Of a stretch of DNA of 64,000 nt, positions 29,766 to 40,110 are shown one piece after another. Below the pieces are notes generated by a model that had not been told where the DNA came from, did not search any database, and was given only the letters and a program-made list of their open reading frames with translations. Within the stretch, counting starts at the first letter, position 1. Each line of letters begins with the position of its first letter. The DNA lies in NCBI RefSeq assembly GCF_964204645.1, contig NC_134033.1, forward strand, positions 5,304,231 through 5,368,230. The letters run 5' to 3'. Both the position numbers and the translations under genes were made by a program. Origin of the DNA: Tubulanus polymorphus. Its lineage: Eukaryota; Nemertea; Palaeonemertea; Tubulaniformes; Tubulanidae.

Positions 29766-31686
29766 GTAAGTAATAGGGAATAAGTTGTTTCATACCAAAG
29801 GTCGAAGGGTCGAGCTCATAAAAAATAAAAATAAATTCTCGCACGCTCGAATTTATTTTTTTATTTTTTACTCACTCGCCCCTTCAACCTTTGCTATGAA
29901 ACAACTTATTCCCCATTACTCTAATATTTTTATAAATTAAAAGAGTGAGTAAAGTGTGAGTAAATCATTTTCTGAATTAACTTTTTTATTCTTTATATTT
30001 CTGTGATTGTTTCCATTAAATTTTTTTCAATTTCTTATTCAATTTCGTATTTTCATTAATCAAATCCTTACTAATATTCTCGTAATAATAGTATAATGCA
30101 GCCAATATTAGCCCTCCAGCAACTAAATAATGCTTCAAATCACTTTTTCCAATAGGAATGCTATTAAAAGTAATTTGAAATATCTTATTTTGAATTACTC
30201 ATACAGCTTAATCTTATTTCAATATAGAATTATTATTCTTTCCATATTTGATATGTTTAATTGTCTGATAATGCTTTGATTTATGTGATTTTAAATATTT
30301 GCCGCCGCAATAACAATACACTTTTTCATTAGGATTGAATTTTCTAAATTCATCATCTAAATTACATAGAATTCCAATATCTTTATTAGAATTATTATTA
30401 ATTGATTCACATAGAATACCAATATTTGATGAATTATTATTATCTAAATCACATTGAATTCCAATATTTGATGAATTTTCATTATAGATAATTTGTTTAT
30501 TATCAAAAATAAAATAATATAATTGTCGTTTTTCAATTCTTAAGTTAATCTAATCGTTGTAACTTTTAGAAAGTATTAAATCACTATCTCTTTCATTAAA
30601 AGGAGTTTGAAGAATATCTATTATGTTTTCTACTAAAGTTCCTTTATAATTTAAAACTGTATCAAATATTTTAGGATTTTAACACCATTATCAAAAGTAT
30701 CTACTAGTTCAGTAATTAAATATGTTTCTTTTGATAATATTTGATTAATCATTGTAAGATTATCAATTTTATATGTCTGGGATATAATGTTTAATGTAAA
30801 ACTGTGAAAATAATTTATTGGTTTCTTTTATTTCGATTTTAAATTTGGTTTCTTCTTCTTCTTTCTTCATTTTTATAACAAGATTTTTATTGAAATAAAT
30901 CTAACTCATTCAAATATAAATATTCAATGTTAAAATATGAATTATTTCAATCACACTTTACTCACACTTTTATGTTTAAAAATCTAACTCATACAAATTT
31001 AAATATTAAAATATGTTTAAAATATAAAATTGATTCGATCACACTTTACTCACACTTTTTATGTAAAAAAAATTAAGAATCTAACGCATATAAATATAAA
31101 TATTCAATGTTTTAAATATGAATTATTTCAATCACACTTTACTCACACTTAAAAGTTGAAAAAAGAGTTAGAGTTTGCTGAAACCTTTCGCTCTAGAATA
31201 TTTTTTACCCCTTATTGGTTACTGAATGATTGATTACATGTATCACATTTATATGTTTCTTTTTCATTTAATTCTTCATAGTAATACATAAATATATCAT
31301 CTTTATATTCTAATTTCAATTTATTCTCTAAGTGAGATTTAATTTCATTATGTCTTGCTTTTTGAGATCTATCTATATTGATTTTACATGTTGGACAGTA
31401 GTACTTCTTATTTGCTTCAATTTTAATATCAAATTTTTTTATTATAATTGATTTTAGAAGTTATTCATATATAAATTATTCATTTATATATGTTATTCGT
31501 TTATATGTTATTCATACATATGGAATTATTAGAGTAATAGGGAATAAGTTGTTTCATATCAAAGGTTGAAGGGGTGAGTGAATAAAAAATAAAAAATAAA
31601 TTCGAGCGTGCGAGAATTTATTTTTCATTTTTTATGAGCTCGACCCTTCGACCTTTGGTATGAAACAACTTATTCCCTATTACTTC
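29766..31686. mobile_element. Small relative of the Polinton-like element, hairpin TIRs
   Basis: About 1.9 kb bounded by inverted AGTAATAGGGAATAAGTTGT sequences. Each end (29768-29930 and 31533-31686) is itself an imperfect hairpin of about 160 bp: the terminal word is followed by CTCGCACG(C)TCGAATTTATTTTT and then by its own inverted copy. The interior is very AT-rich. It holds a minus-strand zinc-finger segment near 30240-30350 and, at 31437-31205, a copy of the zinc-finger ORF found at 39282-39590, here beginning with ATT instead of ATG. About three copies of an 80-bp repeat with CAATCACACTTTACTCACACTT lie at 30900-31150. It lacks a polymerase and is presumably a deletion derivative. Confidence 0.65.
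31205..31437 (-). pseudogene. Zinc-finger ORF relic, paralogue of 39282-39590
   Basis: The minus strand encodes a CPTCKINID-type finger and a second CDTCNQSF finger closely similar to the ORF at 39282-39590. The start codon position carries ATT and the frame ends early, so this copy is likely dead. It belongs to the element at 29766-31686. Confidence 0.55.
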
Positions 31687-32720: not shown

Positions 32721-33713
32721 ATGGCAGTCACTGATGCAAACTCGACAAACTCGACAGACGACACCGTTACAATTAGTCACATGCTTCTATCCGGTACGTG
32801 GCAGAACGCTGTTTGGTACACGTTCAATATTTACATATATTTCTGGATGGTGACCGGTGTTACCGGGGGTTTACTGTCTGCAGTCGTCATGTTCCGTCTG
32901 CGTCGCACGTTAGACGCGTGCACCTTCCAGTATTTGGTACCGCTAGCTTTCTCTGATTCGATTTATGTCGTCACTTTTTCGTTGAAGTCTCTTGAACGAA
33001 TTCACATCGTGGTCGGCACCGCGCACGGTGTGTACGTTTTCTACACCGTGAACGATTTCACCTGTAAATTTGGAATGGTGCTCAACAATTTCGGAATCAA
33101 AACCTCTACACGGATTCTGTCGTGTTTTGCCGTCGAACGCAGCATAGCCGTTTTGGTTACATTGCGAGTTGGGAGACTTATGACCCAGGCTCGCCGCCGG
33201 AATGTTATCGTATCGGTTTTTCTTTATCACGCCGTTACGGAAAGCGCCCAAGGAGTCACTTACCGCATCAAAACCATCGGGCTTGGTTTAAAAAACTGTC
33301 AAATGGACACCGTTTCAGAAGTCGTAGCACAAATCAACGTTATCTATTCTTACACGACGGTGACTATCATTCCTTGGGTTGGTTTGATATTTTCGACGGT
33401 TTTGATCGCTACTCAGTTCGCCAGACGAGATGTCAAGTTCAAAAACAAGAACACTTCCGAACAGGAACGCAGATGCGTGCGCAATCTGATTTGCATAATC
33501 ATAGCCTTTTTCGTATTCAACGCACCAATTACCGTATTGAACTTAGTTTACTTTACGTGTGACAAACTGAGGCATTTACCAAATCCAATACAGCATTTAT
33601 TCTACCTTATCGGCGGCGTTTTTATGATCACAAATAGTGCGGTTAATTTTTTCATATATATCGCGAATTTGAAGTCATTTCGAGACGAACTGGTGCGCAT
33701 AGTGAAACACTGA
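32721..33713 (+). CDS. Rhodopsin-like (class A) GPCR, probable peptide receptor, intronless
   Basis: Plasma-membrane receptor of 330 residues in one exon. I start at the ATG at 32721 (context GAAGATGG): the upstream part of the frame has no ATG, and the new N-terminus carries N-glycosylation sequons (NSTNST) as expected outside the cell. Seven hydrophobic segments are visible. Cys in FTCKFG (start of TM3) and Cys in KNCQMD (second extracellular loop) can form the conserved disulfide. The TM3 end reads VERSIAV instead of DRY, TM6 has FFVFNAPI with the class Pro but no Trp, and TM7 ends NSAVNFFIY (an NPxxY variant with no Pro). These deviations are common among invertebrate peptide-receptor-like families, but the ligand and G protein cannot be told. 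Its 5' flank is duplicated at 29161-29765 and a Polinton-like element begins 39 bases after the stop. Confidence 0.85.
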   Translation: MAVTDANSTNSTDDTVTISHMLLSGTWQNAVWYTFNIYIYFWMVTGVTGGLLSAVVMFRLRRTLDACTFQYLVPLAFSDSIYVVTFSLKSLERIHIVVGTAHGVYVFYTVNDFTCKFGMVLNNFGIKTSTRILSCFAVERSIAVLVTLRVGRLMTQARRRNVIVSVFLYHAVTESAQGVTYRIKTIGLGLKNCQMDTVSEVVAQINVIYSYTTVTIIPWVGLIFSTVLIATQFARRDVKFKNKNTSEQERRCVRNLICIIIAFFVFNAPITVLNLVYFTCDKLRHLPNPIQHLFYLIGGVFMITNSAVNFFIYIANLKSFRDELVRIVKH

Positions 33714-33751
33714 GAACGGAGGCTCGAAAAGATCACATTTCCATATCATAA

Positions 33752-34245
33752 GTAATAGGGTATTAGTTGTTCTATACTAAAGGTCGAAAGGTAGAAAAAT
33801 AAATTCTCGCACACTCGAATTTATTTTTCGACCGTTCAACCTACCCTATTACTTCTATATAATTACAAGTCTCATAAATTTACAAGCCTCGACACGCTGA
33901 GTATTGCGTAATACATGTAGTTTTCTAGAATCATCCATTTAGAAAACTACATTAGCCAATCACAGTTGAGTATTACTCTAGCCAATCATAGTTGAGTATT
34001 CCCTATTACTCTATCCAATCACAGTTGAGTATTAATCTATCCAATCACAGTTGAGTATTCCCTATTACTCTAGCCATTCACAAGCCTCATAATTTACAAG
34101 CCTCAAAACGCAGCTGGGGATTCCCCACTGTTGAGTAGTATAAATAGGCGGGACTCACACGTGGCGGCGGTACGCGTTGAGAGGTAAGTGTCGAGAGGTA
34201 AGTGTTATGTTCAATTTTAATAAAAAAATTCGATATTAAAATGGA
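33752..34245 (+). repeat. Left terminal inverted repeat of Polinton-like element
   Basis: Reads GTAATAGGGTATTAGTTGTT at its tip, then a roughly 100-bp hairpin, then repeated (C/G)CCAATCACAGTTGAGTATT words, the TATA box and leader, and ends in the second codon of the rightward ORF. By eye it is over 90% identical to the right TIR near the TATA box. A 14-bp GAGAGGTAAGTGTC segment is tandemly doubled only on this side. Confidence 0.8.
34139..34146 (+). promoter_or_regulatory. TATA box in left TIR
   Basis: TATAAATA, 102 bases upstream of the ATG at 34241. It is followed by a G/C-rich segment with CACGTG and then AGGTAAGTG, which looks like a 5' splice site. The same arrangement is mirrored at 39670-39677. 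Confidence 0.6.
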
Positions 34246-34697
34246 GAGTAAACAAGTACACAGTGAGAACAACAAATCATTTCTAGATAGATACTATTAT
34301 AGGATCGGCAATTGTTAACGCTTTGGCATTTACTGGTGGTGGATATTTATTTAAACATATTGATAAAAATAGTTCATTAGGAGAACAAAGAAGACATAAC
34401 TTAGCATTAGAGAAATATAATAAAGCTGCAGAAGAATATAGAGAAAAAAGACAAAACTATATGGATTACATCAATAAAGAATTATATAATCAGAAAATTA
34501 CACATAGAGATTTTCAATCAGTCGATGAAGCTATGAGTTTATATAACGCAGTAACAAATAAAGAAAAATTACATTTGTACAAACCTAAATTATCAAATTA
34601 TTATACCCCAAGTAAAGAACAACAAAAATATGAAATAATTTGGATTTTAGGTGGAACAGTTATTGTCATATTTGTTGCAAATAGATTTACTAATTAG
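34241..34697 (+). pseudogene. Element ORF 1, coiled-coil plus C-terminal membrane helix, frameshifted
   Basis: Starts MESKQVHSENN, then shifts frame once near 34288-34295 before continuing to the stop at 34697. The product would have a hydrophobic stretch, a charged coiled-coil-like middle (RRHNLALEKYNKAAEEYREK) and a C-terminal transmembrane helix (about 18 residues before NRFTN). From memory this resembles a hypothetical protein in Polinton-like elements of cnidarians; I cannot check that. Function unknown. The leader and start codon are part of the TIR. Confidence 0.6.
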
Positions 34698-34718
34698 TAA
34701 TTTCTTTTCTAAATAAAT

Positions 34719-35093
34719 GGCTGATGAAGTTGATAATATTGATATTATTCCTCATGATATAAATAAAACTAAATTAAAATTATATTTGGAAAAACAAATA
34801 TTAGAATTTGAAAGTGACTTAAAGATAGAAAAAAAATATTTAAAATCTAAAATCAAATATTAGTGGTTCAGTTACAATTAGTTCTGTTATAACATTTTTA
34901 GCAATATTAACACCTTTATCTATATCAATTGGCGTGTTAGGATAAAGTTCAAGTGTTTTAACCGGAATAAGTTCAAAATTGAATATAAAAAAGTAATAAA
35001 GAAAAAATAAAATCTAATATAAAAGAAATTAATGAATCAAAAAATACATTAGATTATATAATAAGTTTAAATGGTAATATAACAGTTGAATAA
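34719..35093 (+). pseudogene. Element ORF 2, coiled coil plus hydrophobic region, broken
   Basis: Begins MADEVDNID, with a charged helix (KLKLYLEKQILEFE), then a Ser/Ile-rich hydrophobic segment (34865-34950) interrupted by a frame break near 34860 and an in-frame stop near 34944. The layout, a short coiled coil followed by membrane segments, suggests a small membrane protein. No family name can be given. Confidence 0.5.
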
Positions 35094-35143
35094 CAGGATA
35101 AATTATTAAAAGAATTAATAAATTATTAATTTTTTTATTATAT

Positions 35144-35642
35144 AAATGGTAGATAGTTTTCCAAAAGCTTTCCAATATAATAAATAAATTAAATATAATA
35201 TTCCTGCAATAGATTTTAATAAAGATATTTCATATAGGAATGAAGTTTTAAATTCATTAATTAATTTAGATATTTATGTTACTGAAACTAATAATTTCAA
35301 TGCAAAGATGGAAAATATAGTTCATGTATATTTAATTAATTTAAAAAAAATGAAAGATGAAAAACAATGGTTATTAAAATCTAATATGAAGTATTGGCAG
35401 AACAAATTAAATTTGCTGTTTATTGTGCTAAAACAGGATGTGGAATAAGTTGGAATGATCATTTGAATAATTCTAAATATAAATTAATTCAAAGTTTATT
35501 TAGATTCCATACTTATTTTCAAATAAGATTAATATTAAATGAATTAGTGACTCCTTTGCCAGAATCTAGATATTTTAAAGAATTAGATAATAATATTAAT
35601 TTAACAAATCTAACTAAAAAAAATCCATTTTTATATCTGTAA
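35144..35642 (+). pseudogene. Element ORF 3, GCGISWNDHL protein, broken
   Basis: Begins with ATGGTAGATAG, has an early TAA near 35184 and a frameshift near 35385, then encodes a conserved-looking block with two Cys (FAVYCAKTGCGISWNDHL) and an aromatic/basic FRFHTYFQIR helix. I recall similar proteins in animal Polinton-like elements but cannot verify. It runs tail-to-tail into the polymerase remnant, with the junction at about 35640. Confidence 0.5.
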
Positions 35643-36403
35643 ATTTTAATCCACAATCCCAAGTTAAACCTGACACTAGAATAACAATGGCAAGGATCAA
35701 TATTAAAATATTTTAGATTTACGTCTCTAAACCTTTCAAATATATCAGTTAATAATATTACATCTGATTTTAGATATAAATCTACTAATTGTCCATGATT
35801 TTTTATTCCAAAATGATTCCAAATATTCAATGTTCTATTATATACTTCATCTTGAACATATTCATTTTTTAATTCATCATAGAATTGTTCTTTTAATAAT
35901 TCAGTGATATTGAAATCATTATGTGATTTATAAAATGAATATGGAATTGCGCCTCTATATCTCATTAATTGAAAATCATCATTATTTGGATAGTGTTGCT
36001 TTAATATTTTCAATTCATCATTATCTAATGAACTACCTAAAAATCTATATGAATCTATAAATCTTAGGCATCCAAATTGGAAAGATATATAATTCTCAGA
36101 TGTTTTATTAGCTAACTTTTTAAATTTATATGTTGGTATTTTATCTTTTGATCTATATGAATTTACTCTTTCCATTTCATTATTTTTGATGAATCTTTTT
36201 AATAGTATTTGAGGATCTGAATAATCAATTATATCATTTTCATAACAATTTAATATTTTTCTTTTATGATATATTCCTTTTCTATCTTGATCAGTTAGTT
36301 CTTTATTTAATGATTCAAAATCTCCATATATTACAAATGTTACTTTATTTTCGTAATTATATTTTTTGAATTCTAATACTTTATCCTTTTCATTTGGTAA
36401 AAC
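35640..36403 (-). pseudogene. Protein-primed DNA polymerase B remnant, exonuclease and linker part
   Basis: Family-B polymerase of the protein-primed type (DNA_pol_B_2), the replication enzyme of Polintons and related viruses. Visible are the exonuclease motif with YGDFE, a FIDSYRFLGSSL block, a YRGAIPYSFY block and YLKSDVILLTDIFE, followed by DPCHCYSS. After that the frame shifts and ends: the palm motifs that carry polymerase activity are absent, so this cannot be an active enzyme. The upstream part lies at 38052-39165, beyond the nested insert 36404-38043. Confidence 0.8.
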
Positions 36404-36610
36404 GGCCGAAGTCCGATATACGACATTATAGTGCAACGTGTAGAGATACTTTTGGAGTAAATCGGGGAATTAATGCGCAAGCTGAAATATAAAAGCGTAG
36501 TAATATGGAACTAAAAGAAGTTCCATGAAAATAGATCCTTGATTGGGGATCCATATTCTACAGCTGATGACCCGCAACACCTTACATACTAGGGTGATGA
36601 CTCTAAATGA

Positions 36611-37020
36611 CGGTTGACAGATGACACCCAACACACCAGTTAGGTGACGACTCGACAGGACGGTTGACAGATGACACCCTACACACCAGTTAGGTGACGA
36701 CTCGACAGGACGGTTGACAGATGACACCATACACACCAGTTAGGTGACGAATCCACAGGACGGTTGACAGATGACACCCAACACACCAGTTAGGTGACGA
36801 CTCCACAGGACGGTTGACAGATGACACCCTACACACCAGTTAGGTGACGACTCCACAGGACGGTTGACAGGTGACACCATACACACCAGTTAGGTGACGA
36901 CTCCACAGGACGGTTGACAGATGACACCCTACACACCAGTTAGGTGACGACTCCACAGGACGGTTGACAGGTGGACACCCTGCACACCAGTTAGGTGACG
37001 ACTCCACAGGACGTTTGACA
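36611..37020. repeat. 50-bp tandem repeat, eight to nine copies
   Basis: CGGTTGACAG recurs at 36611, 36661, 36711 and so on to 36961, exactly 50 bases apart, with ATGACACCC(T/A)ACACACCAG and TTAGGTGACGACTC. Copies are nearly identical, so expansion is recent. It sits in the nested transposon. Confidence 0.9.
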
Positions 37021-37204
37021 TGTGACACCCTACACATCCTCCCTATGATAACCCAAGATGAACGACACGTCTGGATGCATTAGAAGAGAAAAAATTTCAT
37101 TAAAAAGTAAACGTCGTGGCCATCTGCAATTCGATCGAATTGAAACCCCACCGATACGATTACGAGCGCAGCGTCATACCACTAGACCAACGAGCTCGCT
37201 GACA

Positions 37205-37865
37205 TCTAACGTGAAGGATAAACCCATAACGTGAAGTATAATGTTGTAACGTGAAGGATAAACTCATAACTTGAAGGATAATGTCATGACGTGAAGGATC
37301 AACTCACGTCATCAAGGATAAACCTATTATGTCACCAGATGGCGTGCCGGTCGGAAATAGACCGGCAACCAGTCTAAAATAATTTCGGTTAAAATGCAAA
37401 TTCATTTTATTCATCATACGATTCAAATTCAATTCAATTCAAAATAACTCTTTACGGTTAAGAAGCGTCGTAAGTTTTACGGCGGACGAGTGGAGGTTAA
37501 AAAAAGTTTATCTCGAAAAGTTTTGTATAGTATAATGTGCTCGAGTACTATTGTCTATTATGTATGGGGTACTTCTGCAATTCAGTAGGCTTAATAAAGT
37601 AATTAATGATTCTCTGTTAGTGTTGTTGGCCGACATATTTTGCGTGTAATTTTCCGCACCGGAAATCAAAATTACCTCCACTCCACCTTAGAAAAATACG
37701 CATTTTAATCGCAATTATTTTAGACTGGTTGCCGGTCTATATCCTTCACGTCAGATTAAGGTTGATCCTTCACGTCATGACATTATCCTTCACGTTATGA
37801 GTTTATCCTTCACGTTACTACATTATACTTCACGTTATGGGTTTATCTTTCACGTGATGACTTTA
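37205..37865. repeat. Inverted pair of TTCACGTTATG arrays around a smaller inverted element
   Basis: AACGTGAAGGATAAACTCAT-type units at 37205-37335 are inverted at 37740-37860 (TTATCCTTCACGTTATGAG). Between them lies a nested pair AGACCGGCAACCAGTCTAAA (37361) and its inverse TTTAGACTGGTTGCCGGTC (37720), about 390 bp apart. The GACTGGTTGCCGG word also occurs at 1396, 43330 and 61160. Confidence 0.7.
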
Positions 37866-38051
37866 GCGTCTGTTTGGCGGGGATGGCCGCCCATAAAAGC
37901 CACACTGTAGTCATGGTTGACAGGTTGCCTCTCGTCGTTTACTCTAACTGTCAACTGTCAACTGTCAAACGCTGTTAACACTGACCGAAGAACGCAGTGT
38001 AACTCTACACACGCACTATAATGTCGTATACTGGACTAGCGCCGGTAAAAC

Positions 38052-39165
38052 TATTTTACAATAATCATGATTTTTCACATAATTGTTTATGATTCAATAA
38101 TGCACTTTCAGTTCTGAATTTAGTTATACATTTTCTACATAGATATATTTTATTATCAAAATCATTTTCTGATTTAAAACTAAATCAATGCGTTTTATCC
38201 ACATATAATGATTCTCATAATATAATATATCTATAACATCATTTGAATCATAATCTTTTGATAGGTATAGAGGTTTTAATGTAAAATGTTTAATATTGTT
38301 ACCTTTTGTTTTTGGTAATTTGACTAAATCAAACACATTTATCTTTATATTATTATCTCTTTCTATTTTTGGAATATTTTTAATTCTAACAGGATAATAA
38401 TCTATCTTATAATTATTTTCAAATGGTTTATAATTTGTTAATCTAAAACTATGAGTAATATCTTCTGTTGGATGTAAACAACTAGTAATTGACCATAGAA
38501 AACATTTATTATCTTCATTTTGAACATTTATTACTGCTTTCGTTGTGAATGGTAATTAGCTTGTTGCATTTATATTATCATCTTTATAATATGATGAATT
38601 ATTTTCATCAATTGGTTTTGATTTAGTTAGCTTATTATATTTTGTGTTATAAACATGATAAGTCATAAATATTATTTCATCGAATATTAAACCTGATCCT
38701 TCAAAGTATTTCTCTTCTATTTTACTTTTTATTTCATTATAACATTTATCTAATTTATCTATATGTTGTTTAGATATAATATGTTGTGAATGAGAATTTA
38801 TATTATATATTGGTTTATCTTCAGATTTTATAAATTAAACTTTAGAAGATATACTAATTTTAGGGTATTCAACATCTGTAATTATTTTAATAATATTTTT
38901 CATATTTTCTAAATGTTTTTTATTTTCTTCTTATGTTTTTCCTTTATGAAATTTAAACTCGATAGCTTTTGGACCAATATCACTTTTAAATGCTTCAGTT
39001 ATTTCTATTTCTTTTTTATTATCTAATGAATGAATATAATTTCTTACATCTTCCATGTATGGCGTTTTATTGTTTATTTTATTTTTTATTCTTTTAATTG
39101 TCTTCTGTTTCTTATCATTATCATTATCAAAATAATCTTCACCTAAAATATCATGATTAATAGAA
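38052..39165 (-). pseudogene. N-terminal part of the protein-primed polymerase, degenerate
   Basis: Minus-strand frames, repeatedly broken, encode a YENHYMWIK-like block and, next to the nested insert, a zinc-finger-like C-x2-C...H...C segment as found upstream of the exonuclease domain in Polinton polymerases. Several frame breaks and internal stops are visible, so the gene was dying independently of the insertion. Confidence 0.6.
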
Positions 39166-39171
39166 CGATAA

Positions 39172-39245
39172 CCACACTCAAACGTGGTGAACGGATAATA
39201 AGATCGTCACGACGATGATCTCTAGGGTGAGATCGTCGTGTCTTT
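39172..39245. promoter_or_regulatory. Hairpin between polymerase remnant and zinc-finger ORF
   Basis: CACGACGATGATCTC and GAGATCGTCGTG pair as an imperfect stem around TAGGGT. It is G/C-rich within very AT-rich DNA and sits between two co-oriented genes. Role unknown: it could be an RNA 3' end signal or a regulatory site. Confidence 0.35.
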
Positions 39246-39281
39246 TATATATTTTAGATTGAATAAATAAATTTCTGGTTT

Positions 39282-39590
39282 TTAAATTCTTTTAATCTGT
39301 AAATAGTGGGATTTTATCTTATTATCATTATTAATATTTCTAATATGACTTTTAGATTTTAAATGTTCTTTATAATATCTTTTATCACTGAATGATTGAT
39401 TACATGTATCACATTTGTATGTTTCTTTTTCATTCTTCAATTCATCTAATTTAGTTTCTAATATATCATCTTTATATTCTAAGTTTAATTTATTCTCTAA
39501 ATGTGATTTGGTTTTATTATATCTTGCTTTTTGAGATTTATCTATATTGATTTTACATGTTGGGCAGTAGTACTTCTTATTTGCTTCCAT
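39282..39590 (-). CDS. Element zinc-finger protein
   Basis: Small protein, about 102 residues from the ATG at 39590-39588 (an in-frame ATG at 39623 would add 11). It has two C2H2 units with long His spacing: CPTC followed by H about 18 residues later, and CDTCNQSFSDKRYYKEHLKSKSH (C-x2-C-x12-H-x5-H), the matrin/U1-like variant. The linker is Lys/Glu-rich. This is the only intact ORF of the element. Its leader and first codon are shared with the opposite TIR, so it should be co-expressed with ORF 1. A paralogue is at 31205-31437. Nucleic-acid binding is likely; the target is unknown. Confidence 0.7.
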   Translation of the reverse strand: MEANKKYYCPTCKINIDKSQKARYNKTKSHLENKLNLEYKDDILETKLDELKNEKETYKCDTCNQSFSDKRYYKEHLKSKSHIRNINNDNKIKSHYLQIKRI

Positions 39591-40102
39591 TTTAATATCA
39601 AATTTTTTATTAAAATTGAACATAACACTTACCTTTCAACGCGTCCCGCCGCCACGTGTGAGTCCCGCCTATTTATACTACTCAACCATGGGGAATCCCC
39701 AGCTGCGTGTTGAGGCTTGTAAATTATGAGGCTTGTGATTGGCTGGAGTAATAGGGAATACTCAACTGTGATTGGATAGATTAATACTCAACTGTGATTA
39801 GATAGAGTAATAGGGAATACTCAACTGTGATTGGCTGGAAATACTCAACTGTGATTGGCTATAGTAATACTCAACTGTGATTGGCTAATGTAGTTTTCTA
39901 GATGGATGGTTCTAGAAAACTACAGGTATTACGCAATACTCAGCGTGTTGAGGCTTGTAGATTATGAGACTTGTAATTATATAGAAGTAATAGGGTATTA
40001 GTTGTTTTGTATCAAAAGTTGAATAGTCGAAAAATAAATTCGAGTGTGCGAGAATTTATTTTTTGACCTTTCGATCTTTGGTATAGAACAACTAATACCC
40101 TC
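39586..40102 (-). repeat. Right terminal inverted repeat of Polinton-like element
   Basis: Inverted copy of 33752-34245. It contains CAACTGTGATTGG repeats, a TATA box and leader, and ends two codons into the zinc-finger ORF. The outer part forms the same type of hairpin (39987-40100). Confidence 0.8.
39670..39677 (-). promoter_or_regulatory. TATA box in right TIR
   Basis: TATAAATA on the minus strand, 80 bases from the ATG at 39590, mirrored by 34139-34146. AAAGGTAAGTG follows it downstream. Confidence 0.6.
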
Positions 40103-40110
40103 TATCATAA

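What the first reader, a model, noticed from the sequence alone, without database searches (positions are those of the whole stretch)
33752..40102. TIRs of a Polinton-like element each carry promoter, leader and start codon for two different inward genes
Left (33752-34245) and right (39586-40102) TIRs both contain TATAAATA, the same leader with a splice-donor-like AGGTAAGTG, and the shared context GATATTAAAATGGA. The inverted repeat ends inside the second codon of ORF 1 on the left and of the zinc-finger ORF on the right. Two unrelated proteins would therefore be driven by one regulatory cassette, kept identical by repeat homogenisation. With only a polymerase, a zinc finger and three small ORFs, the set is much smaller than a classical Polinton, so this may represent a compact, little-described lineage.
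Basis: partly seen in the sequence, partly recalled or inferred. Interest (0 to 1): 0.85.

Follow-up and report, generated by a model that had tools for sequence, protein, structure and literature searches.

The report
Polinton ends with exchangeable first genes
The window holds a decayed, internally deleted copy of an ordinary virus-like transposon (a Polinton), but its relatives in the same genome show that both ends carry the same promoter-like cassette and start codon, behind which any of three genes can sit, apparently because one end is copied onto the other.

Summary
Both ~500-bp TIRs (33751-34245, 39586-40103) carry CCAAT boxes, TATAAATA, leader and ATGGA; TSD ATCATA. The 'zinc-finger ORF' is the N-terminus of PolB; ORF 1 is the first ~17 codons of a small gene ('MES', my label) joined by a deletion to another gene. 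Larger relatives carry integrase, A32-like ATPase, PolB and about 14 more genes, so this copy is a deletion derivative with a nested 1.64-kb transposon. The shared start context is nevertheless general: in 33 long-TIR ends (chosen as best TIR matches) the leader is followed by PolB (19), MES (7), a PolB stub (5) or an endonuclease-VII-like gene (2). Genome-wide, a short-TIR leader motif joins PolB 695 times, the endonuclease 157, MES 23; controls 0. Repeat boundaries range from codon 2 to, in one element, apparently the whole polymerase gene. Paired TIRs are sisters in 6 of 7 elements tested. Best explanation: end-to-end copying keeps the cassette alike and moves first genes between ends. No transcript evidence.

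The parts
33745..33750 (.). 6-bp target site duplication ATCATA, left copy (right copy 40104-40109)
33751..34245 (+). left TIR: terminal palindrome, CCAAT boxes (4), TATAAATA at 34139, leader, ATGGA
34241..34291 (+). remnant (first ~17 codons) of the small terminal gene 'MES'
   Evidence: BLASTN to MES of L036, 94%
34293..34694 (+). gene g140 lacking its first 6 codons; deletion joint at 34291/34293
   Evidence: 94.5% to L050:2354-2773; joint not found elsewhere
34717..35126 (+). gene g143, decayed
   Evidence: 86.6%
35158..35603 (+). gene g284, first half; second deletion joint at ~35603/35618
   Evidence: 92.8%; joint not found elsewhere
35618..36403 (-). PolB pseudogene, middle part (last ~36% of the gene deleted, a further ~0.4 kb missing at 36185)
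36404..38043 (.). nested transposon with short TIRs, 8-bp TSD GGTAAAAC (36396-36403 / 38044-38051)
38044..39592 (-). PolB pseudogene, N-terminal part incl. the C2H2 zinc finger (39282-39590)
39586..40103 (-). right TIR: same cassette, CCAAT boxes (5), TATAAATA at 39670-39677, ATGGA start of PolB at 39590-39586

Best explanation
A decayed Polinton copy. Its parent had PolB at one end (TIR-PolB-endonuclease-integrase-ATPase side) and the small gene MES at the other (TIR-MES side); deletions removed MES beyond codon 17, the two genes after it, the whole middle and the end of PolB. The general working is this. Each TIR is a promoter cassette that ends in a leader and start codon. PolB, MES and the endonuclease each carry a version of that leader, so the TIR-leader-ATG joint can lead into any of them. 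During replication or repair of the linear form one end is copied onto the other: the TIRs stay alike, and copying that runs past the ATG takes the first gene along; later deletion leaves the gene at the new end or a stub at the old one. Shown: anatomy, joints, the range of repeat boundaries, sisterhood of paired TIRs. Inferred: promoter activity, the linear intermediate, the copying mechanism and its direction.
For: An 18-kb relative (L049+L050) with integrase, ATPase and PolB; window genes collinear with the MES-side arm (L038, L039, L047) and PolB-side arm (L032, L034, L048) of relatives, and the same two ends in L034/L035. 33 long-TIR ends: PolB 19, MES 7, PolB stub 5, endonuclease 2. Short-TIR leader motif joined to PolB 695, endonuclease 157, MES 23, reversed-pattern controls 0. 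18 elements with the PolB start at both ends, against 7 pairs in the other orientations; a PolB-MES joint lies behind one end in 11 of 18, behind neither in 7, behind both in 0. Element C1:16632735-16654786: TSD AATACG, ends 99.86% identical over all 2102 bp compared, PolB-MES joint in the left arm, and in the right arm a PolB end fused to a PolB stub followed by the endonuclease. Paired TIRs sister in 6 of 7.
Against: No transcripts, so promoter and leader use are untested. By gapped identity the window's right TIR is closer to the TIRs of L032 and L035 (90%) than to its own left TIR (84.6%), although the tree pairs the two. The leader may belong to the genes rather than to the TIR (rival 2). 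The ~4.7-kb repeat of the C1 element is inferred from 2.1 kb at each end, 0.8 kb in the right arm and one pattern match in the left arm, not read through. One of 7 TIR pairs (L016/L020) is unresolved in the tree, two others have support below 95/80, and the eighth pair (L029/L030) was not put in. One PolB end (L034, also seen as L008) has ATA in place of the ATG.
Confidence: 0.7

Rival explanations
1. A compact, separate Polinton lineage whose full gene set is polymerase, zinc finger and three small ORFs.
For: TIRs and a TSD survive around only about 4.7 kb of its own DNA.
Against: Zinc finger and polymerase are one gene; the pieces are 86-95% identical to genes of larger relatives; both deletion joints were found only here; the PolB frame is broken.
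Confidence: 0.03
2. The leader and ATG belong to each gene as a common upstream motif of one expression class; the TIR proper stops just before it, so the shared start is similarity between genes, not a repeat that carries the start.
For: The leader also precedes MES behind PolB, the endonuclease behind PolB, and g341; mean alignment score of the four leaders 22.9 against at most 15.4 in 500 shuffles; two TIR classes join the same leader.
Against: In 5 of 8 pairs the repeat runs on at 95.0-99.9% identity into PolB, in one of them through at least 1.5 kb of it, so there the start codon lies inside the repeat. The leader score is not unique: one pair outside the four (capsid candidate and g284) scores 24.
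Confidence: 0.4
3. First genes are exchanged by ordinary recombination between different copies at the ~35-nt leader, with no end-to-end copying inside one element.
For: PolB has leader-like stretches on both sides; hundreds of copies are present.
Against: Paired TIRs are sisters in 6 of 7 elements; the C1 element has a 99.86% identical end of at least 2.1 kb, which exchange at a 35-nt motif does not give.
Confidence: 0.2
4. The mosaic ends are assembly errors in a repeat-rich genome.
For: Hundreds of similar copies.
Against: Matching 6-bp TSDs at 7 of 8 pairs examined, incl. the window and the C1 element (read by eye; the true ends of the eighth, L029/L030, were not located); the joints recur at many sites with 0 controls.
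Confidence: 0.07

Closest known systems
Polinton/Maverick transposons (vertebrate Mavericks, PMC8097293; passages seen)
   Same: Integrase, ATPase, PolB and 6-bp TSDs; TIRs of a few hundred bases (the paper gives 46-1,447 bp). 5'-AG ends as a Polinton mark are recalled.
   Different: [quoted passage not shown] here the polymerase occurs at either end, and TIRs take in start codons, a gene stub or apparently a whole gene.
Endogenous mavirus-like elements, EMALEs (PMC8547959; passages seen)
   Same: TIRs of 0.2-2.3 kb; [quoted passage not shown]
   Different: No shared start codon or switching of first genes in the passages seen.
Poxvirus ITR expansion and contraction (PMC9973261; passages seen)
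   Same: The repeat boundary moves, can end inside an ORF, and duplicates terminal genes.
   Different: A different virus group; only a mechanistic parallel.

Membership tests
Polinton/Maverick | family B DNA polymerase | tested here: met
   C-terminal 700 aa of the L050 protein: DNA_pol_B_2 E 3.3e-15, 56.4 bits against cutoff 25.8. The whole protein did not list it at 0.001, and the window fragment is below cutoff (17.2 bits).
Polinton/Maverick | retroviral-type integrase | tested here: met
   rve E 8.1e-9 above cutoff, chromodomain below cutoff, in L049; absent from the window copy
Polinton/Maverick | A32-type packaging ATPase | tested here: met
   Pox_A32 E 3.2e-12 in L049; absent from the window copy
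Polinton/Maverick | TIRs and 6-bp target site duplication | tested here: met
   window ATCATA, and 6 further pairs
Polinton/Maverick | jelly-roll major capsid protein | tested here: inconclusive
   candidate L049:6524-7768 (chosen by size and place) has no Pfam or PHROG family and no PDB sequence match; model pLDDT 35
Polinton/Maverick | cysteine protease | not tested
   no specific search; none of the 17 proteins scanned against Pfam listed a protease family at the thresholds used
Compact Polinton lineage (reader) | recurrent small gene set in several copies | tested here: not met
   both deletion joints found only in the window copy

The most novel reading that the evidence does not exclude
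The TIR-leader-ATG joint is a true exchange site: end-to-end copying across it lets a Polinton switch which gene its terminal promoters drive (polymerase, endonuclease VII or a small OB-like protein) and how many copies it has, so the polymerase has moved from one end to the other within a single host genome.
Probability: 0.4. Interest if true: 0.72.

Novelty: new variant of a known kind. Interest (0 to 1): 0.55.

Why it matters
How Polintons replicate and keep their TIRs alike is, as far as I recall, largely inferred. A family with hundreds of copies, two TIR classes, three interchangeable first genes and repeat boundaries from codon 2 to apparently a whole polymerase gene is a natural record of end repair that can be read directly. 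It also suggests how such elements rearrange: genes near an end can be duplicated, moved to the other end, or cut down to stubs. In the searches (no hits; PMC papers under CC licences only) no listed title or abstract opening describes this for Polintons; I read no full paper.

Tried and rejected
Compact lineage: rejected. I first read the window copy as an inversion or as a double right end; one search showed relatives with MES at one end and PolB at the other, so no inversion is needed. Splice donor: AGGTAAGTG is exact in 22 of 24 long TIRs but I made no test for an acceptor, and the four short-TIR copies printed lack it; left open. Capsid fold: model useless, no PDB sequence match. MES function: model pLDDT 65 with an OB-like strand order; the best Foldseek hits are ssDNA-binding proteins (PrgE 0.027, RPA 0.08), none at 0.001. 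PolB in viral contigs: no match to the six peptide patterns used. A PolB protein search of the own genome did not complete. The host was not identified: an animal by its 7TM receptor gene beside the element (inference), 268 Mb in 77 contigs.

Limits of the counts; ends seen through two overlapping loci were counted once (33 distinct sites; L027 and L028 are two sites with like sequence); L015/L041 and L046 have no recognisable leader and are outside the 33; sites were picked as best TIR matches. Pattern counts are of short motifs; that each match lies in a whole TIR or element was not checked; 19 convergent pairs were reduced to 18 elements because two sites share a partner. Searches use only listed places: 100 of 695 PolB joints, and of the 305 PolB-MES and 157 endonuclease joints only those listed on C1 and C2 over the same stretch (40 and 30). 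In one search one of 100 g253 coordinates (C10:7833015) was typed from its end instead of its start; no count here rests on it.
Full report
What was claimed and what is there. The window holds an element at 33751-40103 with inverted repeats of about 500 bases. Both repeats carry CCAAT boxes (4 and 5), TATAAATA, the AGGTAAGTG leader and ATGGA, and the repeat ends in the second codon on both sides. A 6-bp duplication, ATCATA, flanks it. The arms match with E 2e-180, so chance is not an issue.

What the genes are. The right-hand 'zinc-finger ORF' is the first ~90 residues of a family B DNA polymerase: all 150 scored places (of 1947 candidates in the own genome) match, with open frames of up to 1356 aa. 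A relative of about 18 kb (L049+L050, read as two pieces) has 17 gene stretches, among them integrase (rve, 8.1e-9, with a weak chromodomain), A32-like ATPase (3.2e-12), PolB (DNA_pol_B_2, 3.3e-15 on its C-terminal 700 aa) and an endonuclease-VII-like gene (PHROG 1035, 2.2e-13). Its MES stretch gave no open frame of 80 aa, so even this copy is not wholly intact. A candidate capsid gene could not be confirmed. Gene labels (MES, HNH, g140 and so on) are mine.

What the window copy is. By BLASTN against these genes it reads: TIR - MES 1-54 - g140 - g143 - g284 (first half) - PolB (reversed, last ~36% gone, with a further gap) - TIR. This is collinear with relatives whose one arm is TIR-MES-g253-g113-g140-g143-g284-g175-g161-g402-capsid candidate-g341 (L047; L038 and L039 with gaps) and whose other arm is TIR-PolB-HNH-g200-g131-integrase-ATPase (L048, L032; L034 in part). 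L034/L035 has the same two ends in one 11-kb element with TSD CATACT. The joints at 34291/34293 and 35603/35618 were found in no other copy. A 1.64-kb transposon with TSD GGTAAAAC sits in PolB at 36404-38043.

The shared start is general. In 33 distinct long-TIR ends with a recognisable leader, all taken from the best TIR matches, the next gene begins at nearly the same distance from the leader and is PolB (19), MES (7), a 116-134-nt PolB stub (5) or the endonuclease (2); in one PolB end (L008/L034) the ATG reads ATA. A second, short TIR class joins the same leader. Exact patterns give 695 joints of its leader motif to PolB, 157 to the endonuclease and 23 to MES, reversed-pattern controls 0. 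PolB followed by MES occurs 305 times, MES followed by PolB 13 times, MES followed by g253 606 times (up to 3 mismatches), controls 0. In two places MES seems to lie at both ends of one element, C6:16295932-16318377 and C10:5470672-5496497, with PolB next at one end and g253 next at the other; their TSDs were not checked.

The repeat boundary moves. In eight pairs of ends the shared stretch ends inside codon 2 (window), a few codons further (L034/L035), about at the start codon (L018/L017, endonuclease at one end and PolB at the other), 116-134 nt into PolB (L049/L050, L016/L020, L027/L026, L029/L030), or runs through all 2102 bp compared at 99.86% (L012/L010). In this last element, C1:16632735-16654786 with TSD AATACG, a PolB-MES joint lies 4.6 kb inside the left end, and in the right arm a PolB end is fused to a PolB stub (from nt 50) that is followed by the endonuclease. 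The simple reading is that the left end, with the whole polymerase gene, was copied over the right end. Among 100 listed TIR-PolB joints, 19 convergent pairs at 14-20 kb (18 elements) stand against 2 divergent and 5 same-strand pairs; a PolB-MES joint lies behind one end in 11 of 18, behind neither in 7 and behind both in 0. Among 30 listed TIR-endonuclease sites, 8 have a convergent TIR-PolB at 12-22 kb, against 1 divergent and 6 same-strand; the last figure shows that chance neighbours are not rare in these repeat-rich stretches.

Homogenisation. In a tree of 24 long TIRs the two ends of one element are sisters in 6 of 7 elements: window 99/93, L049/L050 100/99, L012/L010 99/94, L027/L026 100/100, L034/L035 89/75, L018/L017 80/71; L016/L020 is unresolved, and L029/L030 was not included. 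Within-element identities range from 84% (window) to 99.9%. Against this, the window's right TIR has a higher gapped identity to L032 and L035 (90%) than to its own partner, partly because of indels in the repeated CCAAT part.

Leaders. The stretches before the endonuclease, MES, PolB and g341 resemble each other (mean score 22.9, lowest 16; shuffles of the four at most 15.4), while those before the capsid candidate, g284, g161, g143 and g140 look like another AT-rich type (pair scores 12-24). Two expression classes are an inference. It also means that the leader could be gene-borne (rival 2), so in the window copy itself one cannot say how much of the leader identity is due to repeat copying.

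Mechanism and limits. I infer that the linear form replicates from its ends and that one end can be repaired from, or primed on, the other; EMALEs with regenerated TIRs (PMC8547959) and poxvirus ITR expansion (PMC9973261) are the parallels in print, of which I saw passages. Promoter function, splicing and the direction of change are not shown. MES may be a single-strand DNA-binding protein (weak fold hits).

Noticed in passing
window ~29769-31684: A second, 1.9-kb member of the same family with the short TIR class; its right end leads straight into a PolB stub (85% to PolB 1-203). No matching TSD was seen.
   Followed up: partly
window 33781-33842 and 39992-40101: Each TIR starts with a long imperfect palindrome (right: 50-nt arms, 82% complementary; left: about 77% over 62 nt), so both ends could fold into hairpins; many relatives show the same self-match.
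   Followed up: no
window 36543-37036 and 37207-37865: The nested transposon holds a 50-bp tandem array and an inverted pair of 20-bp repeats.
   Followed up: no
window 39159-39322: About 160 extra bases interrupt the PolB N-terminal part, with ~10 nt of PolB doubled at the edges: perhaps a small insertion.
   Followed up: no
L020, L027, L028, L030, L049: PolB zinc-finger stubs (about 38-44 codons) at the endonuclease end; in L020 the stub runs in frame into what looks like the C-terminus of the endonuclease gene.
   Followed up: partly
window 32721-33713: Uninterrupted 7TM receptor gene (PF00001, E 1e-15) ending 37 bases before the element.
   Followed up: no
L041 (C5:13187500-13197499): TIR cut short inside its promoter part and joined directly to g113, another end deletion.
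   Followed up: no
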